DNA of 44,897 nt from contig DYGL01000004.1 of assembly GCA_020724725.1 (NCBI GenBank), positions 1 through 44,897 on the forward strand. Direction: 5' to 3'. How positions within the stretch are numbered: position 1 is the first letter of the stretch; every line of letters starts with the position of its first letter. Of this stretch, positions 51 through 29,778 are shown in pieces. The notes under the pieces were generated by a model, which saw only the letters and a list, made by a program, of their open reading frames with translations, was not told the DNA's origin and made no database searches. The translations under genes were made by a program, and so were the position numbers. The stretch comes from Candidatus Microgenomatus sp. GTDB taxonomy: Bacteria; Patescibacteriota; Microgenomatia; UBA1400; PJMF01.

Positions 51-1181
51 TTATCGTTCAATGGCTTCCCAAACTTGACATTCATTTTCAACACAAATTC
101 TGCCTTGCACAATATGTTGCCCAAAATTTTCCAAAGCGTAAATTTTGGAAAGATCTTTTTCTTCTCCTTGATTGCTGATATCCAACCAATTTTCTGATCC
201 TGGAATCAAAATTCTAAATTCATAGTTAAAGTTAACACTCTGGTTTCCACTTGCTGAACAGCGGAAGCGCACTTCATCGCCACTTTTTAACTTTTCATCA
301 TCATCTCCTGTCATAGGATTAAGATTAACATCCAACATTTCAATGCTTGCACAAACTGGCATGGCTTGGCTTTCACAACAATTGCTCACGTTTGGTTGAG
401 CAGCACAAAATAGTTGGTTTTCGCCTTTAGCACAGATTTTCTTAGCCACACCATCTTTATTGACTGGTTGACATGTCAATCCATTATCGCAATCAGCGTT
501 ACTATTACATCCAAACTCTCCGCAATTGAGTTTTTCTTCAAGTGGTGGTTCATCTGGAGGATCGTCATCAGGCGGACAATCTTCACACACAGCATTAGCT
601 TCCTCACATAAATCACCACAGCTATCGGCTGAGCCAATTACCCACCATCCATTGCCGGTTCCGCCACAACGACAGCGAATCAAGCCAACTTCGGAACAAG
701 TTTCTACGCGATCAGTATTAGGATTGTCGCACCAATCTCCGCCCATTGATTCGTTGGTGCAAGCATCTAAATCGGTTACATATCCACAAATAATTCCGCC
801 ATCTGCAGTATCTCTACAAGTCTCATGATAACATTTGTCTGGATCGCCATTGTTTAAGCGATGAGTGTTTGGGCCACAGTCGCCACCATCTGTTGAGTTG
901 GGTATACAATAATCAATTCCTCCAATGTTTTCTAAATGTGTGTCTGGATAGGCTCCACAACCTTCTGGAGGAGCTGGAATATAATTTGGCGCCGCTTGCT
1001 GGCGATTGTCTTGGTTTTGTTGTATTAAGATGTAGCTTGCAGAAATTCCTATTGCTAAAAATAACAAAATAAGTAATCCAGCAAGTCTACTTCTATTTTT
1101 TATTGGCTTGGCGAGTGAAATCTGTTTTTCTAAGCTGATTTTTTTATATTTGGCTGGTAAGTAGTCTCTTGGATCATTCAT
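51..1181 (-). CDS. Cys-rich membrane-anchored/secreted protein
   Basis: 376-aa ORF; basic N-terminus plus one hydrophobic segment (LAGLLILLFLAIGISASYILI), then many Cys residues and a Pro/Asp-rich linker; TATAAT upstream on minus strand. Confidence 0.7.
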   Translation of the reverse strand: MNDPRDYLPAKYKKISLEKQISLAKPIKNRSRLAGLLILLFLAIGISASYILIQQNQDNRQQAAPNYIPAPPEGCGAYPDTHLENIGGIDYCIPNSTDGGDCGPNTHRLNNGDPDKCYHETCRDTADGGIICGYVTDLDACTNESMGGDWCDNPNTDRVETCSEVGLIRCRCGGTGNGWWVIGSADSCGDLCEEANAVCEDCPPDDDPPDEPPLEEKLNCGEFGCNSNADCDNGLTCQPVNKDGVAKKICAKGENQLFCAAQPNVSNCCESQAMPVCASIEMLDVNLNPMTGDDDEKLKSGDEVRFRCSASGNQSVNFNYEFRILIPGSENWLDISNQGEEKDLSKIYALENFGQHIVQGRICVENECQVWEAIER

Positions 1182-1276: not shown

Positions 1277-2065
1277 GTGCAGAAAGACAACTTGCTTTAC
1301 TACCTTGATTTCGTTTGGCTTCTAACAAAAAAAGAAATCAAACTGCGTTATAAAAGAACTTTTTTGGGTTTGTTATGGGTGATCCTCAATCCTTTGTTAC
1401 AAATGTTAATTATTGGTTTGGTTTTTCAGTTTTTTGTGCCGATGAAAATTGAAAATTATTTTTTGTTTTTATTTGCCGGACTTTTGCCTTGGGGTTTTTT
1501 TGCTAATTCTTTGCTTCGAACCACGCCACTTTTGGTGCAGGAAAGAGCTTTGATGCAGAAAGCAGCTTTTCCAAGGGAGGTTTTGGTCGTAGCAGCGGTT
1601 TTGGCCAATTTGTTTCATACTTTGGTGGCGAGTGGAGTTTTTTTGTTTTTTCTGACTTTTTTGCAAGGTAATTTAATGGATGCTTTGTGGTTTTTTATCT
1701 CTAGACTGTTTTTATCAGCTTTCTTTTTTGGTTTTTTCTTATTATTTGTTTTGGCTACTTGTTTGATTGTCTCCGCTCTTTATGTCAGAGTGAGAGATTT
1801 AAATTTTGTAGTACAACTTAGCGTCCAACTGCTCTTTTATGGAGTGCCTATTGTTTATGGTTTGAGTATGTTGCCTGAGATTTTTAGGCAAATTCTTTAC
1901 TTTAACCCTTTAGTAAGTTTTATTGAGATTTTTCGCTATTTTTTCTTGGGTGGTGAATTTAATTTAACGTCTACTTCTGTAGTTGCTTTATTGTCTTTTC
2001 CTTATTTATTAGTGGCTTTACGAATTTTTAGAAAAGAAAGTAAAAATTTTGATGACTGGTTCTAA
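1277..2065 (+). CDS. ABC-2 type polysaccharide exporter permease (Wzm-like)
   Basis: 262 aa; N-term LTKKEIKLRYKRTFLGLLWVILNPLLQMLIIGLVF typical of Wzm/TagG permeases; adjacent to Wzt-like ATPase. GTG start. Confidence 0.9.
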   Translation: MQKDNLLYYLDFVWLLTKKEIKLRYKRTFLGLLWVILNPLLQMLIIGLVFQFFVPMKIENYFLFLFAGLLPWGFFANSLLRTTPLLVQERALMQKAAFPREVLVVAAVLANLFHTLVASGVFLFFLTFLQGNLMDALWFFISRLFLSAFFFGFFLLFVLATCLIVSALYVRVRDLNFVVQLSVQLLFYGVPIVYGLSMLPEIFRQILYFNPLVSFIEIFRYFFLGGEFNLTSTSVVALLSFPYLLVALRIFRKESKNFDDWF

Positions 2066-3086
2066 AACAGCTGTTTTATTAAAGAAAGTAAATAAACGCT
2101 ATTTTTTGCGCAACTCTTTTGATAATAAGCCTTTTTTGGCCCTGCAAAACATTAACTTAAAGATCAAGCAGGGCGAAAAAATTGCTATTTTGGGTGATAA
2201 TGGTGCTGGTAAGACTACTTTGCTAAAAATGATCGCCGGCATTGCCGAGCCAAGCACTGGTCAGGTGAAAACTAGTGGTAAGGTAGTTTCCTTGATTGAC
2301 ATTACCGCCGGTTTCCATCAAGAGTTTTCTGGTCGAGAAAATATTTATCTTAATGCTATTTTGCTTGGTCTCAGACCAAAAAATGTCAAAAATCTAGAGC
2401 AAGAAATTATTGATTTTGCTGGCTTGGGTGAGTTTATTGATCAGCCAATCTATACCTATTCTTCAGGCATGGTTTTGCGTCTTGGTTTTGCCGTGGCCAT
2501 TCACGCTCAGCCAGATGTTTTGATTCTAGATGAAGGGATTATTGTTGGCGATCAAGATTTCCAGAAGAAAGCTTACGATAGTGTCGAAGAAATTTTTGCG
2601 AAGGGTAAGACCATTGTTCTCTCTAGCCACATGTTGCCTCTGCTTAAAAGACTTTGTCAGCGTTTTGTTTGGTTGGAACATGGTCAAATTATGATGGATG
2701 GTGGGCAAGAGGTTTTACTTGAATACAAGAAACACCGCGCCAATTTGCAAATAGAGAATTTGCCGAGTAATAAAAATGCTTCTTTATTGTTTGATTTTCT
2801 AAAAAACTTGCCAATTGGTGAGAAATTTGTAGCGACCGCTAGTAGTGGGAGTATGGAGCCTTTAATTTTGAAGGGTGACGAGATTGAAGTGGAGCGAGTT
2901 GATTTTGCTAATCTCAAAAAAGGCGATGTGATTGCTTTTTGGAATGATGCCTTACAAAACGTAGTTGTTCATCGCTTTTATAAGTTGGAGCAGGGCAAGA
3001 TTGTGACTAAGGGTGATAATAACCTAGTGGCAGACGTGGGTTATGTTGAGAAGGAAAATTTCTTGGGTAAAGTCTCAGGCTTTTGA
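2049..3086 (+). CDS. Wzt-like ABC ATPase fused to a C-terminal S26 signal-peptidase-like domain
   Basis: Walker A GDNGAGKTT, signature YSSGMVLRLGFA, Walker B VLILDEG; C-terminal about 95 aa contains SSGSMEPLILKGDEIEV...GDVIAF...VVHRFY...TKGDNN..AD, matching S26 peptidase motifs with His rather than Lys as putative base. Confidence 0.88.
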   Translation: MMTGSKTAVLLKKVNKRYFLRNSFDNKPFLALQNINLKIKQGEKIAILGDNGAGKTTLLKMIAGIAEPSTGQVKTSGKVVSLIDITAGFHQEFSGRENIYLNAILLGLRPKNVKNLEQEIIDFAGLGEFIDQPIYTYSSGMVLRLGFAVAIHAQPDVLILDEGIIVGDQDFQKKAYDSVEEIFAKGKTIVLSSHMLPLLKRLCQRFVWLEHGQIMMDGGQEVLLEYKKHRANLQIENLPSNKNASLLFDFLKNLPIGEKFVATASSGSMEPLILKGDEIEVERVDFANLKKGDVIAFWNDALQNVVVHRFYKLEQGKIVTKGDNNLVADVGYVEKENFLGKVSGF

Positions 3087-3368
3087 TTGCTTTTCAACAA
3101 TTTTCTCTTTAAGTGCCTGCTTCAACCATTCTTTGAGGTCTTTTTCCAACTCTTCTTTGGAAACATCATATTCTTGATTGAGTTTCTTGAGTAGATTGTC
3201 AAAAGAAATTGGTTTGGCTAGATTTTCCCAGATAGAAAAAGCCACATCTTCGAGTTCGATGATGTGTTTTTTATCTTTAGTCAGAAGCAAAAAGTGGTCG
3301 TTTTTTTTTAAAAAAACAACACCAACACTTCTAGAGAAAAGAAGACCATTTAAAACATCCATAATCAT
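3075..3368 (-). CDS. PqqD-family protein (RRE-like peptide-binding domain)
   Basis: 97 aa; HIIELEDVAFSIWENLAKPISFDNLLKKLNQEYDVSKEELEKDLKEWLKQALKEKIV matches the PqqD-fold pattern (LN..a..iW.lldg..t..ei...l...ydv....v..dv..fl..L...gli). Confidence 0.8.
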   Translation of the reverse strand: MIMDVLNGLLFSRSVGVVFLKKNDHFLLLTKDKKHIIELEDVAFSIWENLAKPISFDNLLKKLNQEYDVSKEELEKDLKEWLKQALKEKIVEKQSKA

Positions 3369-3392
3369 TAAGATTTTAGGATTTTTTAAGTA

Positions 3393-3467
3393 TTATATTG
3401 CTTCAGCAACAGCCAAACTGATTTTAATTTTGGCTTTTTTTAGCACTGGTTTGTTGTATTTTTTCAT
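3393..3467 (-). CDS. Candidate RiPP precursor peptide, 24 aa (MKKYNKPVLKKAKIKISLAVAEAI)
   Basis: Read by hand on minus strand; absent from ORF track because of length. GAGAAGGA-like ribosome-binding sequence just upstream, near-consensus promoter about 60 bp upstream, YxxPxL motif, 24 bp before the PqqD-like gene. Confidence 0.55.
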   Translation of the reverse strand: MKKYNKPVLKKAKIKISLAVAEAI

Positions 3468-3506
3468 ATTTCCTTCTCTGTTTTAAGAATTTTTATTTGA
3501 TTGAGC

Positions 3507-3535
3507 TTCACACTTTCTATCTGATCCAGTATAGT
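3507..3535 (+). promoter_or_regulatory. Candidate sigma70-type promoter for the QueC-like gene
   Basis: TTCACA - 17 bp - TATAGT. Confidence 0.4.
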
Positions 3536-3583: not shown

Positions 3584-4561
3584 ATGAAAAAAAATAAAGA
3601 TTTTGTTTCGAGGAGTTTTTTTAATAATTTTTTAAAAAACAGAGAAACTGAAGACTTAAATTTAATAGAGAATTTAGATAAGCTTTTTTTAAAAAAAAGA
3701 GGCTACGTTATTGAAAAACCAAAAGAATCGTCCAATGTGATTCTTTTACTTTCTGGAGGTTTAGATTCAATAGTCGCATGGGCTTTTCTAATGGAAGTTC
3801 GCAAGTACACTGTTTATCCAGTTTTTGTTAAAAGTAAAAAATTTAATTTATTTTCTCCAGAGTTTAGATCTATTCGTTATTTTTCTAAATATTTTTCTAA
3901 AAAATATGGGAAAAAATATGTAAAGCCTTTTTATTTAACTGTTTCTACACAACCAAAAGAGAAATCAATGTTTATAGGAAAAGAAAATTTAAGTGGAGTA
4001 GATATTTTAAATAATTTTCAATTAAACAACCATTTCTTGGAAAATGGTTCAAACATTGTGATATTTGAACCTCAAAACGTAGATCCTTATATCAAATCTT
4101 TTTATGGCTTGATTTACGCTCAATATTTAAATTTTCGCCACGGATTAGACGTAAAAGATATTTTTGTTGGAATCAACGCCTCTGACGGTTTGTTGGCAAG
4201 CAGTCAGTCTCTAACTTCAATAAGAAGCACAATGCTTTCAATGTGTATTTCTACTAACAAATATGATTGGAGTTTTTCTTCTCCATTCTTTGAAAGAGAG
4301 TTGGGTTCTATTATGGATAAGAGTAGTGTTATAAGAATAGGTCATGGTTTAGGTTTGCCACTTGAAAAAACTTGGTCTTGTTATAAAAAAAATAATATTC
4401 TGCAATGTGGAAATGATTGCATAAGTTGTGTTAATAGGAGACATTCTTTTGAGGAAGCAAAAGTTAAAGACGAAACCTTTTATAGTTTTTCTATTAAAAA
4501 AAGACTATTTGTTGCTCTCAATTTCAGATTAAAAAAACTTTTGAAATTATTAAGCATTTGA
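3584..4561 (+). CDS. QueC-like PP-loop ATPase
   Basis: PP-loop VILLLSGGLDSIVAWAF; C-terminal zinc-site pattern TWSCYKKNNILQCGNDCISCVNRRHSF as in QueC. ORF track starts at 3551 (TTG); ATG at 3584 more likely. Confidence 0.8.
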   Translation: MKKNKDFVSRSFFNNFLKNRETEDLNLIENLDKLFLKKRGYVIEKPKESSNVILLLSGGLDSIVAWAFLMEVRKYTVYPVFVKSKKFNLFSPEFRSIRYFSKYFSKKYGKKYVKPFYLTVSTQPKEKSMFIGKENLSGVDILNNFQLNNHFLENGSNIVIFEPQNVDPYIKSFYGLIYAQYLNFRHGLDVKDIFVGINASDGLLASSQSLTSIRSTMLSMCISTNKYDWSFSSPFFERELGSIMDKSSVIRIGHGLGLPLEKTWSCYKKNNILQCGNDCISCVNRRHSFEEAKVKDETFYSFSIKKRLFVALNFRLKKLLKLLSI

Positions 4562-4564
4562 ATA

Positions 4565-5314
4565 TTATCTTTTCTGCAAAATACCTAAACCAGAGTTTTT
4601 TGGAAAGGGGAAAGTGATTTTTTCTTGTATCCTTAATTCTTGCCAAAACTTCTTGACTCCATAATCCCCGCCGGTGAGTTGACCGGAAGCAACGATATCA
4701 TGAAAGCTCATGATCCCTCCTTTTTCCAACCTAGGATAGAAAAGCTTGTAGTCTAATTTGACTCCTTTGTAAGAATGGTCACCATCAATGTAAATATATT
4801 GATATTTTTTGCTTTGATATTTTTTGGCGAATTCTAAAGTCGTCATTAAGTGAGTGATGATGTGTTTATCAACTCCAACTTGAGCAAAATGATCCTTTGG
4901 ATTGATTTTTTTCCAAAAACCAATGCCTTGCCAATTTTGGCCATCATCGGTCTCATCGTAAGCAGCATCTACGAAATCTACTTTTCCAAAACCAATGTCT
5001 CGACAGGCACTAGCAATCATCATTGGCACATAACCTTTGAGTGAACCAACCACTAAAATATTTTTAGGTTTTAAATTCTGTACAAGAGCATAGTGAAGTA
5101 AGCCAAAGCCTAAGCTAGCGTTTTTTGAATCAACATTTTGTCCCTGATTGCCGTCGTATTTATCAATAAGAAATTTGGCAACATCTTTTTTAATTAGGCT
5201 GCTTTTGAGTTCTTTTTCTAAGCAATTTTTTTTATATGAATAGTAGATCTTTCTCAAACCAAACCATTTCACCAAATCAAGAAAATTTAGAATATTTTTA
5301 CGGTTAATTAACAT
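4565..5314 (-). CDS. Class I SAM-dependent methyltransferase (Methyltransf_24-like)
   Basis: NILVVGSLKGYVPMMIASACRD, YIYIDGDHSYKGVKLDYKLFYPRLEKGGIMSFHDI. Confidence 0.7.
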   Translation of the reverse strand: MLINRKNILNFLDLVKWFGLRKIYYSYKKNCLEKELKSSLIKKDVAKFLIDKYDGNQGQNVDSKNASLGFGLLHYALVQNLKPKNILVVGSLKGYVPMMIASACRDIGFGKVDFVDAAYDETDDGQNWQGIGFWKKINPKDHFAQVGVDKHIITHLMTTLEFAKKYQSKKYQYIYIDGDHSYKGVKLDYKLFYPRLEKGGIMSFHDIVASGQLTGGDYGVKKFWQELRIQEKITFPFPKNSGLGILQKR

Positions 5315-5959: not shown

Positions 5960-7297
5960 GTGCAAAAAACAAATCAAGCAAATCTTTCTCAAGTGCAAAG
6001 CTCAGCTTTAAAATCTGCGCAAAATTGTGTGGCTTACGCCAAGCATTTAAAATCAAATAATCTTGATTCAAAAAAGACAGTTTTCGAAAACTTGCCTCTT
6101 TGTGACAAAGATAACTACACGGCAAAATATTCCATAGAAGAGAGAATTGATAAAAATAAATGTCTGGCTGATTTTTACATGATTTGCACTAGTTCTGGTT
6201 CAACCGCTGAACCAACCATTTGGCCTAGGGATTATGAATACGACCGTGGTTTGGAGCCACCTCACACCAAATTTTTAAACGAACATTTTTCTTTTAGTCA
6301 AAAGAAAACTTTGGTTGTAATTGCTTTTGGCTTAGGCACCACTCAGGCAGGCATGATGCACCTCAAATCTTCTTGGGAAGGAAGTTTGCATGGGCAAATT
6401 AGTGTCATTGCTCCAAATGGTGATGCAGAACAAACTGTTTTTTTATTGAATAAGCTTCATCCTCACTATGAACAAATTATTGTAATTGGTTATCCGCCAA
6501 TTATTAGTGATTTTATTGATTTGGCAGAGGAGAAAAAGCTTGACCCGCAAAAATGGAATTTGAAAATAGTTTTTGCTGGTGAAAGTGTCAGTCCTCTTTG
6601 GCGCAAAACAATGGCAAAAAAAATTGGTGGTAGTCAGCGCGACATCGTGTCTTTTTATGGTAGTACTGAGGCAGGCATGATTGGTTTTGAGTCGAAAGAG
6701 ATAAATCAATTGATTGCTCGTTGTTTGGATGATGAAGATTTGCGTTTTGATCTTTTTAAAACCTTTAATTTGCCAACTTTGGTGGAAGTTAATTTTGACA
6801 AAAAATATGTAGAAATAGTTGATGGCGAAATTGTGGTAACTGCCGATCAAGCAGTTCCTTTAGTTAGATATAATTTGCACGATCGAGGTTTTATTTTAGA
6901 CTCAAAAACAATTCAACAAGTTTTAAATCAACATAAAATTGGTTATAAATATCCAAAGAATCAAGGTTTTTTGGTGATTTATGGCCGTAATTTATCTAGG
7001 CAAATTTCTATTGAGGACGTGCAAAATGCCTTGGCTATTCTAAATTTTGCCAAATATTTTCATAAAGAATTTCAATATCAAGAAAAAACCAGCAAAGGGA
7101 GCATCATTTTGTCCTTGAATTTATATGCCAAAAATGACGAAAGCATTGCTGGAGAAAAAATTAAGTCTTTAGAAGTTGCCATGGCGAAAACAATTTCTAG
7201 ATTAATAATGTCAGCCCATCCGGTCAAAGTGAAAATTAAAGTTTTACCTGAAGCTCAAAGATTGGGTTATAAGTCTGGCAAACTCAGATATCTTTAA
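5960..7297 (+). CDS. PaaK-like adenylate-forming enzyme (phenylacetate-CoA ligase/CoF synthetase family)
   Basis: ICTSSGSTAEPTIWPRDYEYDRG and SFYGSTEAGMIGFES motifs; GTG start. Confidence 0.82.
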   Translation: MQKTNQANLSQVQSSALKSAQNCVAYAKHLKSNNLDSKKTVFENLPLCDKDNYTAKYSIEERIDKNKCLADFYMICTSSGSTAEPTIWPRDYEYDRGLEPPHTKFLNEHFSFSQKKTLVVIAFGLGTTQAGMMHLKSSWEGSLHGQISVIAPNGDAEQTVFLLNKLHPHYEQIIVIGYPPIISDFIDLAEEKKLDPQKWNLKIVFAGESVSPLWRKTMAKKIGGSQRDIVSFYGSTEAGMIGFESKEINQLIARCLDDEDLRFDLFKTFNLPTLVEVNFDKKYVEIVDGEIVVTADQAVPLVRYNLHDRGFILDSKTIQQVLNQHKIGYKYPKNQGFLVIYGRNLSRQISIEDVQNALAILNFAKYFHKEFQYQEKTSKGSIILSLNLYAKNDESIAGEKIKSLEVAMAKTISRLIMSAHPVKVKIKVLPEAQRLGYKSGKLRYL

Positions 7298-7321
7298 CTA
7301 GTCTTGTGGTTTTTTAAATTT

Positions 7322-8419
7322 ATGCAGCAATTTTTAATCAATCAGCAAATTACAAAACTTCATTGTGATTTAGGTTCTTTTGTAAAGTTATCAGAAACTT
7401 TTGATTTTAAAGTTTATTCAAATATTGCTTTATTAAGCAACAGGTCTTTAACCAAAATTTATCAATCTGAAATTGAAAGTTTTTTTGCTCAAGCTGGTTT
7501 TGCTTTGCAAATTATTGAGCTTGAAGATGGAGAACAATTTAAAGATTTGAAGCAAGTACAAAAAGTTTGGAAGGAGTTATTTAATTTGAAATTTGATCGT
7601 CACTCTTTACTAATTAATTTTGGCGGCGGCATGATTTCTGATCTCGGCGGTTTTGCCGCCGCCACCTTCATGCGTGGCATTGACTTTATCAATGTGCCAA
7701 CCAGTCTCTTAGCTCAAGTTGATGCGGCTCTGGGTGGGAAAACGGCTATTAATTTTGGCCAAATTAAGAATGGTATTGGTTTGTTTGTTAATCCAAAATT
7801 GACGGTTATTGATCCAACTTTTACCAAATCTTTGCCAGAAAGAGAAATTTTATCTGGTTTTGCGGAAGTTTTAAAACATGCCATTATTTTTGACTCAAAA
7901 CTTTTTTCTTTGTTGGACAGTAAGCCCTTTTTATCCTTTTCCTTGGAAGAGTTGGTAAAAATTATTGATCGCTCTTGTTTTTTGAAAATGAAAACTGCTG
8001 AGCAAGATTTCCTAGAGAAAAACCAGCGCAAGCTTTTAAATTTCGGTCACACCTTGGGCCATGCTTTTGAAGCGATTTCATTAAAATCTAAAAAGCCTCT
8101 TGCTCATGGGGAGGCGGTGGCACTGGGCATGCTTTTGGAAAGTCGTTTGGCAGTGACGATTGGTTTGCTAGCTAAAGCAGATTATTTGCAAATTGAGCAA
8201 ATAATTAATCGCAATTATGTTTTTGACTTGGATGGAGAAATTAAAGTTGCTGATGTTTTAGCCTTGCTTCAATTTGATAAAAAGAAAAAAGCCAATGAAA
8301 TTTATTGGTCGCTACCTCAGGCAGTTGGTCGGGCAGTCTATGATCAACTAATCCCTGAGTCGGAAGTTGAATCTGTTGTCAATGAATTTATGTTGGGAAA
8401 TTCAAAAAATGTTATCTAA
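7322..8419 (+). CDS. aroB: 3-dehydroquinate synthase or related sugar-phosphate cyclase
   Basis: FGGGMISDLGGFAAATFMRGIDFINVPTSLLAQVDAALGGKTAIN; LLNFGHTLGHAFE; HGEAVALGM. Track starts at 7304 (GTG). Confidence 0.92.
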   Translation: MQQFLINQQITKLHCDLGSFVKLSETFDFKVYSNIALLSNRSLTKIYQSEIESFFAQAGFALQIIELEDGEQFKDLKQVQKVWKELFNLKFDRHSLLINFGGGMISDLGGFAAATFMRGIDFINVPTSLLAQVDAALGGKTAINFGQIKNGIGLFVNPKLTVIDPTFTKSLPEREILSGFAEVLKHAIIFDSKLFSLLDSKPFLSFSLEELVKIIDRSCFLKMKTAEQDFLEKNQRKLLNFGHTLGHAFEAISLKSKKPLAHGEAVALGMLLESRLAVTIGLLAKADYLQIEQIINRNYVFDLDGEIKVADVLALLQFDKKKKANEIYWSLPQAVGRAVYDQLIPESEVESVVNEFMLGNSKNVI

Positions 8420-9068
8420 ACTGCCAATCTGCACCATCTTGGCTGAAACAGATTTGGCAAAAACAAGAGCACTGGTAGCTAAAGTAGAAAAAGACTCTAC
8501 TTTTTTTGAATTGAGAGCTGATTTTCTAAGCAATTTAAATGAAGAATTGATTTATTCTCTTAAAAAGATTCTCAAATTACCGACAATTTTTACACTAAGA
8601 GACATAGAAAATGGCGGTCAATTTGCTGGTTCTAATGCAGAAAAACTGAATTTTTATAGGCAAGCCGCTGATGCTTCTTATGAATACTTAGATCTTGAAT
8701 TAGATTCACCTTTAATTGATGTCTTCGACAGGAAAAAGTCGAAATTGCTTCTTAGTTACCATAATTTTTCAAAGACACCTAGTCTTGCTCAACTGCGCTC
8801 AATCATCGCTACAGCCCAAGCTAAAAATCCAGACCTGATTAAGATTGCTACCTTTGTTAATCAAACAACTGATTTACAAGTTTTGGCAAAATTACTACTA
8901 GATCACCAAGTTTCAAAGCAACTAATTGTGGTTGGGATGGGTGAGTTGGGCAAGCCATCGAGAGCCTTTTTTCCTTATTTGGGGTCTTTTTTGACTTATG
9001 CTGTTTTCAATAATAAGATAGCGTCAGGTCAACTTTCTTTGTTGGAAATGCAAAAGTATGTCTTCTAA
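8409..9068 (+). CDS. aroD: Type I 3-dehydroquinate dehydratase
   Basis: FFELRADFL, LPTIFTLRDIENGGQF, LLSYHNF (catalytic His), DLIKIATFVN (Schiff-base Lys). Track starts at 8367. Confidence 0.88.
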   Translation: MLSKLPICTILAETDLAKTRALVAKVEKDSTFFELRADFLSNLNEELIYSLKKILKLPTIFTLRDIENGGQFAGSNAEKLNFYRQAADASYEYLDLELDSPLIDVFDRKKSKLLLSYHNFSKTPSLAQLRSIIATAQAKNPDLIKIATFVNQTTDLQVLAKLLLDHQVSKQLIVVGMGELGKPSRAFFPYLGSFLTYAVFNNKIASGQLSLLEMQKYVF

Positions 9069-9786
9069 ATCTTGGATTTTCATTGCTGGTCCCTGCGCAG
9101 CCGAAAGTCGAGAGCAAATTCTCGCTTCCGCTAAATCTTTGAGTGAAATTGGTGTGCCTATTCTACGAGCTGGGGTCTGGAAGCCAAGAACTAACTCCAA
9201 CGATTGGCAAGGAGCTGGAGACGTGGCTCTAGAGTGGTTGAGAGAAGCCAAGAAAGCTACTGGCATTTTAACGGCAACTGAAGTTAGAGATCGAAGAACT
9301 CTGGATTTGGCGATAAAGAATGGCGTCGACTATTTGTGGATAGGCTCTCGAAATGCGCAAAACTTTGCACTTTTAGAGGAGGTTGGTCAAGCGACATCTC
9401 AAAGCAAGGCTCCAGTGATTTTGAAGCGCTCAATGTCATCTTCACTTCAAGAATGGCTAGGTAGTGCTGGATATATAGCCAAATATAATTCAAATATTAT
9501 TCTTTGCGAGCGAGGCATTCGCGGTTATTCTCCAGATACCAGAAATATTCTCGATCTACAAACCGCTTATTTGGCCAAGCTAGAATCTCCCTATCGAGTC
9601 ATAGTTGATGTTAGTCATGCGGCTGGTCGCACTGACTTGATTTATCCAATGTCTCTGGCTGTCAAAGCAGCTGGCTTTGATGGTTTGATGATTGAAGCTC
9701 ATCCTGATCCAAAACAGGCAAGAACTGATAGTTTTCAACAAGTAGACTTTAAAGAACTTAAAAAAATTTTCCATGCAGTTAAATAA
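9058..9786 (+). CDS. 3-deoxy-7-phosphoheptulonate synthase (DAHP synthase, type I-beta-like)
   Basis: FIAGPCAAES, LRAGVWKPRTN, GSRNAQNFALLEEVG, ILCERGIRGY..TRNILDL, VIVDVSHAAGR, GLMIEAHPDP. Confidence 0.9.
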   Translation: MSSKSWIFIAGPCAAESREQILASAKSLSEIGVPILRAGVWKPRTNSNDWQGAGDVALEWLREAKKATGILTATEVRDRRTLDLAIKNGVDYLWIGSRNAQNFALLEEVGQATSQSKAPVILKRSMSSSLQEWLGSAGYIAKYNSNIILCERGIRGYSPDTRNILDLQTAYLAKLESPYRVIVDVSHAAGRTDLIYPMSLAVKAAGFDGLMIEAHPDPKQARTDSFQQVDFKELKKIFHAVK

Positions 9787-11053
9787 ACTACAAAATATTA
9801 TTGACAAGGCTTGGAAAACACCAGCTTTCAGAGATTTTTATACAAAGAATAAGGCTCCTCGACAGATTGGTTCTAAAAGAGATTTAGCAAAATTTCCTTT
9901 GTTCAGCAAAGAGCTTTATCATAAGCTAATTAAACAAAAACCTTTGAAACTTGGCGATAATGTTTATATTTTAAAAACTTTGGTTGATTTGGAAGGTCAT
10001 GAAACAATTTTTCCCTTATCGGCAAGTGATTATCAAAATTACATTGCCTTGGAAAAACGTAAGTTTGAGTTGCTTGGTGTAAAAAAAACTGATCTTTGCA
10101 GTGTGGTGGCTTTTTCTCAAAATCATACTTTGCCTTTGACACAATCTTTCTTGGCTCTTGGAGCGTCTTATATCCCTCTGGATGGAGATGAAGAAAAGAT
10201 TTTTCGCAACCTAATAGAACAAAAAGTAACAGTGCTTTTTACTATTCCACCTGTGGTTTACCGTCTTTTAGATTACGTCAAATCTAGGCAACTTAAAACT
10301 TCTTTGCGCCTAATCGTCACTACTGGGGTGAAAATTCCTGATGTGGCAGAGTTAAGCAAAGAAACAGAGAAAATTTTGGGTGCCAAATTGCTGGATACCA
10401 TTGGTGCAACTGAGTTGGCTTCTTTTGCTTTTTCTTGTCCAGAGCACCCCAATTTTTATCATTTTGTTGATCAGCAACAAATAGTCGAAATTCTAGATCC
10501 ACAGACCAAAAAAGCTAGCAAAAGTGGTGAAATTGTGATCACTCCACTTTGGAAAGAGGATTTTGCGCTTCTTCGCTATGCGACGGGTGATTTTACTAAA
10601 ATTAATGAAGAGCTAACTTGTGGTTGTCGTTTGCAAAATAAACTTTTAGTTAGTGGCGTAGAAAAAAGATTATCTCAAACAACCAGAATACAGCGTTATT
10701 TAGTTAATTTTGATGATTTTTATTACAAAATTAAAGATAGTTTGCTATGGCAATATTTTTTTGATTCTAAGTTATGGTATTTTTTTGAGAAGCCAAAGTT
10801 ATTTGTTTTGCTAAGCAAAGTTAATCATGCAGATCGTGTTTTGGTTTTTATTGAAAAGCAAAAATTTTATTTAACCTTGAGAAAAAGGCAAAAAATTGAA
10901 GAGGTTATTTTTCAAATGACTAATGCTGACGTACAAATTGTGCTTTGTGATAAAAAAATAATCCAAAAAGTTAAGATTAATCATCAAGATATTAGAGATT
11001 TAAAGCAAAAGAATCTCTCTAAGGAAGTTTTGGCGCTTTTAAAACTATGCTAA
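9773..11053 (+). CDS. Second PaaK-like adenylate-forming enzyme
   Basis: Divergent PaaK-type protein: LLDTIGATELASFAFSCPEH, GEIVITPLWKEDFALLRYATGDFTKI. Confidence 0.78.
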   Translation: MQLNKLQNIIDKAWKTPAFRDFYTKNKAPRQIGSKRDLAKFPLFSKELYHKLIKQKPLKLGDNVYILKTLVDLEGHETIFPLSASDYQNYIALEKRKFELLGVKKTDLCSVVAFSQNHTLPLTQSFLALGASYIPLDGDEEKIFRNLIEQKVTVLFTIPPVVYRLLDYVKSRQLKTSLRLIVTTGVKIPDVAELSKETEKILGAKLLDTIGATELASFAFSCPEHPNFYHFVDQQQIVEILDPQTKKASKSGEIVITPLWKEDFALLRYATGDFTKINEELTCGCRLQNKLLVSGVEKRLSQTTRIQRYLVNFDDFYYKIKDSLLWQYFFDSKLWYFFEKPKLFVLLSKVNHADRVLVFIEKQKFYLTLRKRQKIEEVIFQMTNADVQIVLCDKKIIQKVKINHQDIRDLKQKNLSKEVLALLKLC

Positions 11054-27204: not shown

Positions 27205-27881
27205 TAGTTTAATTTCTTACTGACTAAGTCTATAAAAATGTTTATCGAATGACGGTTTTTTTGCCCTTTTTTCTTTGATTGGAGATTATATTTCACAGTG
27301 ACAGGAACTTCCACATAAGATAACTTTTTTCTTTTGATTTGATCTATTATTTCTGAAGCGTGGGCCATTCTATCTTGACTAATGTTTATTAAATGCAGAG
27401 CTTTCTTGTTTAAAGCTCTAAAGCCGTTATGAGTGTCTGTTAATTTAATTTCTGAAAAAATCCAAGTAAAAAAGATACCAATTTTTAAAACGAATTTTCT
27501 AAAAAATGGCATATTTATAGTTTTGCCCAAAAATCTCGAACCCAAAACAACATCAGCTTGATTTTTTAAAATTGGCTCAATCATTCTTGGAATTTCTTCG
27601 CCTAGAAATTGTCCATCAGCATCAAAAGTAATTGTGACTTCTGGATTTATTTTTTTTAGATAATCAAAGCCAGTTTGAATTGCTGCTCCTTGACCCAAAT
27701 TAATACAGTGTTGGAGAGTTATTGCTTTTGGATGCTTGGCTGATTCCAAAGTTGAATCTGTTGAGCCATCGTCCACAAGGACAATTAAATCAACATATTT
27801 AGCTACGCTTTCAATAACTTTTTTTATTTTCAGGGCTTCATTGTGGGCGGGAATAACTGCTGCCACCAGTTTTTTACTCAT
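27204..27881 (-). CDS. GT2-family glycosyltransferase
   Basis: VAAVIPAHNEALKIKKVIESV, LVDDGSTDSTLE, TFDADGQFLGEEIPRMI, LTDTHNGFRALNKKAL. Confidence 0.88.
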   Translation of the reverse strand: MSKKLVAAVIPAHNEALKIKKVIESVAKYVDLIVLVDDGSTDSTLESAKHPKAITLQHCINLGQGAAIQTGFDYLKKINPEVTITFDADGQFLGEEIPRMIEPILKNQADVVLGSRFLGKTINMPFFRKFVLKIGIFFTWIFSEIKLTDTHNGFRALNKKALHLINISQDRMAHASEIIDQIKRKKLSYVEVPVTVKYNLQSKKKGQKNRHSINIFIDLVSKKLN

Positions 27882-29778
27882 ACTTTTTTTTCATTTTATC
27901 AATTACATTTAGTATTTTATCCCCATCTAAATTCAAAGTATCAAAGTACCATTTTAAATTATTATATTGAGGCTCATTTTCTTCTTTAACCAGTTCAAGA
28001 GCCTTTTCCCTTGAAAGGATTCCTTCTCTAATTTGTCTAGATCTAAAGGAGTCGTTTTCAGTAAAACCCTGAACTTGGTAATAAATGTAGTTATAAAAAG
28101 CTGGAGTGCCATCACCAATTCTCCAAGAAGTGCTGGTGTCTTCTGACATTTCCCAGTTGTGCTCTGTGGTCAGAGTTTTGACAATCTCATCTTCTTGCCA
28201 TGGCAAATAATGCCACAAATAAACATAATCATGAGGTTTTAAATAAGTAGAGAAGTAACCAAAAGCTGTGTCAAAAATAGAGCTGTTGAAATAACTTGGA
28301 TTTTTGAGATACTGCCTGCCGTAATAAGAGAGTAGTTTGATTTTATCCAAAGCGGTGATGTTGTGAATCACCCCATCTGGATCAGCTTCTTTGACGCCGC
28401 AAAGTCCTGATTTAAATTCTTCTTTCTCCAGCTCGTTGCCCCGACAATAAATCATTAAGGGAATTTTGTATTTGCGCATAACTTGATCAGCGTAATACTC
28501 ACATTGTTTGTCTCCTTGCATGAATATGGGCACCATGCCTAAGTCAGGATTTTTAATCCAAGCTAAAATGTTTTCTCTAATATCTTTTCTTTTTTTGGCG
28601 ATGTTGGCTGAGACCAGAATTTGTTCAACTCCTAATTTCCCCAAAACTCTAGCTTGATTTCTCCTGCCAAGGTCAGAAATCATGCCCCAGTCGTAAGTAA
28701 AAGCAATTGGATTCAAGCCAAGCTCTTTTTTGATTAAATGTAGCCCATAAGAGCTGTCTCTCCCACCGCTAAAAGCGACCAAGCAGTCAATCTTTCCATT
28801 TTTTCTATATTTTTCTAAAGTTTCTTCTAATTTATTTTTACCTAAATAGCTAATTTTTTTATGCTCTAAACAATAATTACAAACTCCCAGCTCATTAAAT
28901 TTAATGAAAGGAGTTGTTTCTGGCAAAATACATTTACTACAGCGCTTGATTTGATCAATTTTTTGATAGTCGATTTGATGTTTTTTTAAATCCTCTATCT
29001 TGTTGATGAAATGATTTTTTTGAAGCAAAAGACCGTCGCTTTTAGAAAAATCTTTGAGACCATTAATGCTTTCATTTTTTTTGAGATCAAAAACCAACAA
29101 TTCATTTTTAATTTGAGTTGGTTTTGTTAAAAAAATCTTTTCTAAAGTTGATTTTTCAGAAGCAAAATAAACTTCCTCGTTTTTTTTCAAAAAATATAAA
29201 GAACCATTATTGCTATAGAGCAGTAATTGATTTGTTTCTGTTAAAAATAAGGCTAAATTAGCAGTGCCTTCAACTTTTTTGTTAAGTAGCTTCAATAGAA
29301 GTTTTGGCTCCAAAACCTTTTCATTTTTGGTGATTTCATCTTCCAAATAATCTAATAAAACCTGAGTGTCTAGTTCTATTGTTTCGTTTTTGTTTTTTTG
29401 AAAAGATTGATAATTAACAATGATTCCATTATGAATGCCAACGATTTTTTCATTTTTACTTATTACTGGCTGGTTGTTTCTATTGTTTTCCGCATCACCA
29501 TGAGTGGGCATGCGCGTGTGTCCCATGACTAGATTTATTTTTTCTCCAACCAACTCATTTTTGAGTCTTTCGTATTCCTTGCTTTTTAGAAAGCCTTTAA
29601 TATTTTGACTAGATTTAATTAAATCTTTCTGTTTTTCTCCAACCACAAAAAGACCGGCTGCTTCAGAACCCCTTGAAAGAGAGGAGTTGAATAGTTTTTT
29701 AATTGCTGGCTCTAGATCACTAAAATAATAACTCTTTTTAGAATTTTTGGAGTTGATTATGCCGTAGATACCACACAT
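27874..29778 (-). CDS. Fusion: class-II glutamine amidotransferase + WbpG-like N-acetyl sugar amidotransferase
   Basis: N-terminal MCGIYGII (Cys nucleophile), MGHTRMPTHGD; middle CSKCILPETTPFIKFNELGVCNYC; PP-loop CLVAFSGGRDSSYGLHL. Confidence 0.85.
   Translation of the reverse strand: MCGIYGIINSKNSKKSYYFSDLEPAIKKLFNSSLSRGSEAAGLFVVGEKQKDLIKSSQNIKGFLKSKEYERLKNELVGEKINLVMGHTRMPTHGDAENNRNNQPVISKNEKIVGIHNGIIVNYQSFQKNKNETIELDTQVLLDYLEDEITKNEKVLEPKLLLKLLNKKVEGTANLALFLTETNQLLLYSNNGSLYFLKKNEEVYFASEKSTLEKIFLTKPTQIKNELLVFDLKKNESINGLKDFSKSDGLLLQKNHFINKIEDLKKHQIDYQKIDQIKRCSKCILPETTPFIKFNELGVCNYCLEHKKISYLGKNKLEETLEKYRKNGKIDCLVAFSGGRDSSYGLHLIKKELGLNPIAFTYDWGMISDLGRRNQARVLGKLGVEQILVSANIAKKRKDIRENILAWIKNPDLGMVPIFMQGDKQCEYYADQVMRKYKIPLMIYCRGNELEKEEFKSGLCGVKEADPDGVIHNITALDKIKLLSYYGRQYLKNPSYFNSSIFDTAFGYFSTYLKPHDYVYLWHYLPWQEDEIVKTLTTEHNWEMSEDTSTSWRIGDGTPAFYNYIYYQVQGFTENDSFRSRQIREGILSREKALELVKEENEPQYNNLKWYFDTLNLDGDKILNVIDKMKKKYE

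What the first reader, a model, noticed from the sequence alone, without database searches (positions are those of the whole stretch)
2049..3086. ABC exporter ATPase (Wzt type) carrying a C-terminal S26 signal-peptidase-like domain
The SGSMEP serine motif, a VVHRF segment (His-type base as in SipW/ER-like enzymes) and KGDNN..AD motif are in the same ORF as a canonical Wzt ATPase. No TM segment is evident, so the protease-like domain should be cytosolic, unlike ordinary signal peptidases. That implies a cytosolic substrate handed to the exporter. It replaces the carbohydrate-binding C-terminal domain seen in some Wzt proteins.
Basis: partly seen in the sequence, partly recalled or inferred. Interest (0 to 1): 0.75.

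Follow-up and report, generated by a model that had tools for sequence, protein, structure and literature searches.

The report
Peptide-exporter motor with built-in leader peptidase
In several ultra-small (CPR) bacteria, the energy-supplying part of a membrane exporter has a peptide-cutting enzyme fused to its tail and sits beside genes for a tiny, probably chemically modified peptide, which suggests that these cells trim and export a so far undescribed small peptide product with one coupled machine.

Summary
The fusion is real. ORF 2049-3086 is a Wzt-type ABC ATPase joined in frame to a SipW/archaeal-type S26 peptidase domain without a membrane anchor. The same fusion is open in four genomes of one genus (one complete) and in two more genera, and is under purifying selection in the close pair tested. 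A sister genome has the two halves as separate, overlapping genes. The peptidase domain folds like a signal peptidase (model pLDDT 86), and Ser268/His308/Asp329 align with human SEC11 and are conserved.

Next to it lie a PqqD-type RiPP recognition element and, on the minus strand at 3393-3467, a 24-codon gene MKKYNKPVLKKAKIKISLAVAEAI with the YxxP leader motif that such elements bind. Comparable short candidates occur in 16 of 17 module loci. S26 domains without an anchor sit beside PqqD; anchored ones never do (15/17 versus 0/58).

Best explanation: a RiPP maturation-and-export module in which the exporter ATPase carries its own leader peptidase. The closest precedent is LppS/LppB of Bacillota (2026). 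New here are the fusion to Wzt, the QueC-like enzyme and the very short precursors. No step has been shown biochemically.

The parts
2049..3086 (+). Wzt-type ABC exporter ATPase fused to a C-terminal S26 (SipW/archaeal-type) peptidase domain. ABC about residues 20-235 (nt 2106-2753); docking helix plus S26 about residues 244-345 (nt 2778-3083). Ser268 codon 2850-2852, His308 codon 2970-2972, Asp329 codon 3033-3035
   Evidence: domains; nearest solved relatives Wzt, TarH, TagH; fusion in relatives; fold and SEC11 alignment; purifying selection on both parts
1277..2065 (+). Wzm-type ABC-2 permease, the membrane partner; overlaps the start of the fusion gene
   Evidence: ABC2_membrane 3.6e-13; next to Wzt in the module loci of the relatives
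3393..3467 (-). Candidate RiPP precursor gene, 24 aa: MKKYNKPVLKKAKIKISLAVAEAI, with a GAAGGA ribosome-binding site and a YxxPxL motif; directly upstream of pqqD
   Evidence: found by motif and position; 0.33 per kb in module loci versus 0.04 per kb in controls; dN/dS 0.13 between window and G005
3075..3368 (-). PqqD-family protein, a stand-alone RiPP recognition element (97 aa)
   Evidence: PqqD 3.1e-11; best solved match 9x8z, LppB per PMC13381572; then TbiB1, 9x90 and TfuB1; only PqqD found in the genome
3528..3557 (-). Promoter-like site TTGACA-18-TATACT (11 of 12) upstream of precursor and pqqD; a divergent + strand site lies at 3507-3535 before the QueC-like gene
   Evidence: consensus match only, and the total in the region is not above the shuffles
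3584..4561 (+). QueC-like PP-loop ATPase (SGGxDS motif; Cys-rich C..CG.C..C..R zinc-type site), putative peptide- or carboxylate-modifying enzyme
   Evidence: QueC 5.1e-13; invariant PP-loop and Cys residues in 7 relatives; best solved matches Cap9 and QueC
4565..5314 (-). Methyltransf_24 class methyltransferase, in most module loci
   Evidence: 1.8e-15

Best explanation
This is a maturation-and-export module for a ribosomally made, post-translationally modified peptide (RiPP). A 24-residue precursor (3393-3467, minus strand) is bound through its YxxP leader motif by the stand-alone PqqD recognition element. The QueC-like PP-loop enzyme, probably with the methyltransferase, activates a carboxylate and modifies the peptide. 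The recognition element then presents the precursor to the S26 domain on the exporter's own ATPase (Wzt), which cuts off the leader in the cytosol with a Ser-His-Asp site. Because the peptidase is part of the ATPase, the trimmed product is released at the mouth of the Wzm/Wzt channel and exported. Shown here by sequence: the fusion, the catalytic residues and fold, the gene neighbourhood and the conserved precursor. Inferred: binding, cleavage, modification and export of the peptide. Not known: the cleavage site (A-x-A three residues before the end is suggestive in four congeners) and the product.
For: (1) In-frame fusion conserved in several lineages, with purifying selection on both domains. 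(2) The S26 domain aligns with SEC11A/C over the catalytic Ser, His and Asp (E 1e-16) and its model has a signal-peptidase fold. (3) Anchorless S26 goes with PqqD: 15 of 17 loci have PqqD within 1.5 kb, and the other two have it slightly further away; 0 of 58 membrane-anchored S26 loci do (Fisher p 6e-14). (4) Y..P small ORFs beside the module in 16 of 17 loci, about 8 times the control density; dN/dS 0.13 in the close pair. (5) The Asp that hydrogen-bonds the leader Tyr in LppB (D70, PMC13381572) falls on the invariant Asp of all 8 PqqD proteins. (6) Precedent: LppS, a SipW-like peptidase, cleaves an RRE-bound YxxP leader, and Ser, His or Asp mutants are dead (PMC13381572). (7) A helix precedes the S26 domain where LppS docks on its RRE; the motif F-L-x-x-L-P-x-G recurs in fused and several free anchorless forms. 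(8) One PqqD and one such S26 were found in the whole available genome, in overlapping adjacent genes.
Against: No biochemistry. Wzm/Wzt transporters are known for glycans, and the locus is a glycan cluster, so peptide export by this pair is unproven. The whole-protein model was poor outside the S26 domain (mean pLDDT 55). QueC-like genes also occur beside Wzm/Wzt without detectable PqqD or S26 (G007, G010), so that enzyme may serve another substrate. In G074 the fusion carries a frameshift. After any plausible cut the core would be only about 2-8 residues, unusually small.
Confidence: 0.65

Rival explanations
1. The ABC pair exports a surface polysaccharide, and the S26 domain is a regulator or processes a protein partner of glycan export; the PqqD/precursor genes are a separate peptide system that merely lies beside it.
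For: Wzt is closest to O-antigen/teichoic acid exporters, and the surrounding 40 kb is rich in glycosyltransferases and polymer genes. In some loci Wzm/Wzt and S26/PqqD are separate genes (G013, G287).
Against: Anchorless S26 goes with PqqD whether or not it is fused to Wzt. The fusion turns up on different Wzt backgrounds within the same PqqD/QueC-like module.
Confidence: 0.2
2. The S26 domain cuts its own polypeptide (LexA/UmuD-like autoproteolysis) to release or switch the ATPase.
For: The fold also matches the LexA/UmuD peptidase domains, and the domain follows a linker in the same chain.
Against: The active site is Ser/His/Asp of the SEC11/SipW type, not Ser/Lys. Related anchorless S26 domains are free-standing proteins beside PqqD.
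Confidence: 0.07
3. The S26 domain is an inactive remnant used only as a docking site for PqqD and the precursor.
For: One distant homologue fused to a nucleotidyltransferase-like part has lost Ser and His (G332, 422 aa), so loss does happen.
Against: All six intact fusions keep Ser, His and both Asp residues, and dN/dS of the domain is 0.05.
Confidence: 0.08

Closest known systems
Linear polyphosphorylated peptide (LPP) system of Bacillota: LppS SipW-like leader peptidase with LppB recognition element (PMC13381572)
   Same: Archaeal-type signal peptidase with Ser/His/Asp used as leader peptidase; stand-alone PqqD-type recognition element with a Tyr-binding Asp; YxxP leader; clusters inside polysaccharide loci
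   Different: There the peptidase is free-standing, the exporter is MsbA-like, precursors are 35-200 aa, and an HprK-like kinase plus NTP transferase are core genes. Here the peptidase is fused to Wzt of an ABC-2 exporter, precursors are about 21-43 aa, a QueC-like enzyme is present, and no HprK or NTP_transf_5 was found in the genome
Peptidase-containing ABC transporters (C39 PCATs) of bacteriocin and RiPP export (from general knowledge)
   Same: Leader peptidase and ABC exporter in one polypeptide, so trimming and export are coupled
   Different: PCATs carry an N-terminal papain-like Cys protease on a full ABC exporter half; here a C-terminal serine peptidase sits on a stand-alone ATPase subunit of a Wzm/Wzt pair
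Lasso peptide systems (B1 recognition element, B2 peptidase, C cyclase)
   Same: Stand-alone recognition element, YxxPxL leader, PP-loop ATP enzyme nearby
   Different: The peptidase is S26 and not the B2 Cys peptidase; the PP-loop enzyme is QueC-like and not AsnB-like; the core is too short for a lasso
Wzt with C-terminal carbohydrate-binding domain (Aquifex-type, 8dku)
   Same: ATPase of a Wzm/Wzt exporter with an added C-terminal domain
   Different: The added domain is a peptidase
QueC-family protein conjugases Cap9 (type IV CBASS) and QatC (PMC13279940)
   Same: QueC-like PP-loop enzyme that may act on a peptide or protein substrate
   Different: No defence genes; here with PqqD, precursor and exporter

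Membership tests
RiPP biosynthetic cluster (general) | Short genetically encoded precursor with a conserved leader and variable C-terminus | tested here: met
   Y..P precursor candidates in 16 of 17 module loci, 0.33 per kb versus about 0.04 per kb in controls; purifying selection in the close pair. Translation not shown
RiPP biosynthetic cluster (general) | Recognition element that binds the leader | tested here: met
   PqqD Pfam hit, top solved matches 9x8z (LppB), TbiB1, 9x90 and TfuB1, Tyr-binding Asp invariant. Met for the protein family; binding itself not tested
RiPP biosynthetic cluster (general) | Post-translationally modified product | not testable with these tools
   Needs mass spectrometry
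LPP family | SipW-like peptidase with Ser/His/Asp beside a stand-alone recognition element | tested here: met
LPP family | Leader motif YxxPxVLxHQxIxFETxxS | tested here: not met
   Only Y-x-x-P and a hydrophobic residue at Tyr+10 are shared among the precursors
LPP family | HprK-like kinase and NTP transferase in the core cluster | tested here: not met
   No PF07475 or PF14907 match in the available genome, 84% complete
Wzt (ABC-2 exporter ATPase) | Wzt-like ATPase with intact motifs beside a Wzm permease | tested here: met
   permease at 1277-2065; GDNGAGKTT, YSSGM, VLILDE and SSH present
Wzt (ABC-2 exporter ATPase) | Exports a polysaccharide | not testable with these tools
   Substrate cannot be read from sequence
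S26B (SEC11/SipW-type) signal peptidase | Signal-peptidase fold with catalytic Ser and His | tested here: met
S26B (SEC11/SipW-type) signal peptidase | N-terminal membrane anchor with the active site outside the membrane | tested here: not met
   No hydrophobic segment; fused behind a cytosolic ATPase
C39 PCAT | N-terminal C39 Cys protease domain | tested here: not met
Lasso peptide system | B2 (transglutaminase-fold) peptidase and AsnB-like cyclase | tested here: not met
   Neither is among the seven neighbouring genes scanned

The most novel reading that the evidence does not exclude
A new RiPP class of CPR bacteria. A QueC-family enzyme activates a carboxylate of a roughly 24-residue scaffold peptide and attaches or forms a small moiety there. 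A signal-peptidase domain on the exporter's ATPase then releases a tiny, 2-8 residue conjugate straight into a Wzm/Wzt channel hitherto known only for glycans.
Probability: 0.3. Interest if true: 0.85.

Novelty: new variant of a known kind. Interest (0 to 1): 0.68.

Why it matters
If true, bacteria have at least twice invented an exporter that carries its own leader peptidase: the Cys-protease PCATs, and this serine-peptidase Wzt. It would extend signal-peptidase-type RiPP processing from Bacillota to CPR (Patescibacteria/Minisyncoccota), where few peptide natural products have been described (general knowledge). It would also give the O-antigen-type Wzm/Wzt exporters a peptide substrate, and offer a QueC-family enzyme with a candidate peptide substrate. 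All pieces are small and can be tested in E. coli extracts.

Tried and rejected
Sequencing-error fusion: rejected (six intact homologues including the window, one from a complete genome). A conserved hydrophobic + strand peptide at 3178-3486 looked coding between relatives, but is the antisense shadow of the minus-strand precursor gene. LPP membership: rejected on motif and missing kinase. LexA-type Ser/Lys site: rejected; the base is His. NCBIfam has no family for the precursors. Wzt fusions in Bacillota: none among the loci fetched from 344 genomes sampled. Literature: no mention of PqqD, peptides or Patescibacteria in the QueC-family survey, and no report of an ABC ATPase-signal peptidase fusion found in the held library. 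Whole-protein structure model too weak to place the S26 domain relative to the ATPase. Plasmid search gave only archaeal-type signal peptidases and one unannotated match. One or several origins of the fusion could not be decided: the Wzt tree needs three changes, but its well-supported branches force only one.

Full report
OBSERVATION. The window (contig 31 of a 0.7 Mb, 84% complete genome) comes from the CPR/Minisyncoccota; its nearest named relative is Candidatus Pacebacteria UBA6188. ORF 2049-3086 encodes 345 aa. Residues 32-162 match ABC_tran, and 257-344 match archaeal-type signal peptidase I (TIGR02228, 74 bits, cut-off 52) and Peptidase_S24. Nearest solved relatives of the ATPase part are Wzt, TarH and TagH, and the match ends near residue 234, before the peptidase begins. 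There is no membrane segment.

IS THE FUSION REAL? The same single open frame is found in three further genomes of the genus (87, 70 and 60% identity; G003 is one complete contig), in G017 of another genus of the family (345 aa) and in G322 of another family of the class (351 aa). Pfam confirms the ABC_tran plus S24 architecture in G003, G017 and G322, although the S24 score is below the curated cut-off in G003 and G017. In G002, of the same genus, Wzt (240 aa) and S26 (117 aa) are separate genes overlapping by four bases. In G074 the fusion has a frameshift. Between window and G005, dN/dS is 0.05 for each domain. A tree of the Wzt domains needs three changes to place the fused ones, so repeated fusion or fission is likely, but one origin is not ruled out; the anchorless S26 domains form one side of a well-supported branch (98/99) away from anchored ones.

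PEPTIDASE. A model of the domain alone is good (pLDDT 86, pTM 0.78), and its best structural matches are human SEC11C/A, bacterial signal peptidases and LexA-type domains (Z 8-9, so fold only). The profile aligns with SEC11A/C at E 1e-16, bringing Ser268, His308 and Asp329 onto the SEC11 Ser, His and Asp positions (the SEC11A residue roles are from general knowledge). These residues are kept in all intact fusions. In place of the membrane anchor is a short helix with the motif FLxxLPxGxxF. In LppS the N-terminal helix is what docks on the recognition element (PMC13381572).

NEIGHBOURHOOD. Downstream on the minus strand is a PqqD protein, the only one found in the genome. Its best solved match is 9x8z, LppB bound to its leader, followed by lasso B1 proteins. 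LppB Asp70, which holds the leader Tyr, aligns with an Asp invariant in all eight PqqD proteins of the module. Next on the plus strand is a QueC-like PP-loop enzyme with intact SGGxDS and Cys motifs, closest in the PDB to Cap9 and QueC. A Methyltransf_24 gene follows, and in relatives a PLP-dependent decarboxylase. This set is conserved but patchy across the class: QueC-like hits in 19 of 373 genomes; 18 regions were then read in detail.

THE PRECURSOR. Between pqqD and the QueC-like gene a minus-strand ORF of 24 codons (3467-3393) encodes MKKYNKPVLKKAKIKISLAVAEAI, with a ribosome-binding site and a promoter-like site 60 bases upstream. Relatives: MKKQAKKYSKPELKKSKIKINFAFAVAK (G005), MKKQLKKYVKPELKKNKVKINFAFAASK (G001), MKKKSYNKPSVKKVALVAVAFAEPI (G002), MQKYKKPQLRIIDLKAILVVAE (G003), MKYIVPQDIRVEILAVLVQED (G017), MSTKKQKKKYKKPQDLRVKINALLFLEGE (G322), MKTPKRIYKKPADKKIKLRAVLIIPEAV (G183), MKKKSQVKVVKYQKPSDTRSKITVMLVET (G287). 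Aligned without gaps on the Tyr they share P at +3 and I or L at +10 (read by eye). A fixed rule (Y..P, basic, 18-60 aa) finds such ORFs in 16 of 17 module loci, 27 hits in 81 kb, against 9 in 223 kb of control sequence and about 6 expected in shuffled module sequence. Not every hit counts: a few of the 27 are clearly chance, one control hit is a true module copy, and for G017 the rule picked another ORF than the one listed above. dN/dS is 0.13 between window and G005. The conserved + strand 'peptide' over the same stretch is the antisense shadow.

ASSOCIATION. Over 75 S26 loci from three searches (order, class, and 344 genomes of a Bacillota centre), PqqD lies within the fetched 1.5 kb in 15 of 17 anchorless cases and 0 of 58 anchored ones (p 6e-14; relatives are not independent and a few loci recur, so the p value is only indicative). 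The two exceptions, G017 and G013, have PqqD a little further away. Elsewhere in CPR the same anchorless S26 is fused to NTP_transf_5, and the QueC-like enzyme to PqqD: further links between the same parts.

MECHANISM. By analogy with LppS/LppB, whose RRE-dependent leader cleavage was shown with Ser, His and Asp mutants (PMC13381572), PqqD should present the precursor to the S26 domain. Fusion to Wzt would place cleavage at the exporter. In four congeners the peptide ends A-x-A plus three residues, which recalls the signal peptidase rule, but this is only suggestive. What the QueC-like enzyme does is open; the QueC family is known to act on proteins in Cap9 and probably QatC (PMC13279940), and G007/G010 carry it without PqqD.

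COMPARISON AND VERDICT. It works like LPP processing combined with the PCAT principle, but is a member of neither: the LPP motif, HprK and NTP transferase are absent, and the protease class, position and transporter differ from PCATs. It is best called a new variant of a known kind.

Noticed in passing
window 7304-9786 with 5960-7297 and 9773-11053: A partial shikimate pathway (DHQ synthase, type I dehydroquinase, DAHP synthase) flanked by two AMP-ligase-like genes inside a CPR glycan cluster; suggests an aromatic or dehydroshikimate-derived acyl group for the surface polymer or the peptide.
   Followed up: partly
window 51-1181 (-); L059 7699-9090, L063 3935-6097, L098 11836-13221: Proteins starting with an N-P-R-D-[FY]-L-P-[AS]-K-Y-K type motif, Cys-rich in the window copy, sit beside Wzm/Wzt in this genus; no Pfam match for the window copy. 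Possible exported or assembly partner.
   Followed up: no
L096 12884-14179, L097 9393-10721, L065 8236-9513: The same anchorless S26 domain fused to NTP_transf_5 (PF14907) in other CPR genomes, with PqqD adjacent in L096 and L065.
   Followed up: partly
L096 8227-9507, L099 5539-6879, L102 8686-9897: QueC-like enzyme fused to a C-terminal PqqD domain in one chain.
   Followed up: partly
L102 5770-6044, L096 11177-11266, L099 6924-7025: Precursor candidates of the loci with QueC-PqqD fusions end in Trp/Tyr-containing tails (SIWGGGYAY, SIWGGGDPY, KVWTMSY, KIWTDY), unlike the hydrophobic tails of the Wzt-fused type.
   Followed up: no
L098 8211-9158 and L104 8482-9345: QueC-like gene beside Wzm/Wzt and a methyltransferase but with no detectable PqqD or S26; L104 has a nearby ORF with a radical-SAM-like Cys motif.
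   Followed up: partly
window 27874-29778 (-): Glutamine-amidotransferase domain protein whose C-terminal half carries a SGGRDS PP-loop motif, as in amidotransferases of surface sugar synthesis.
   Followed up: no
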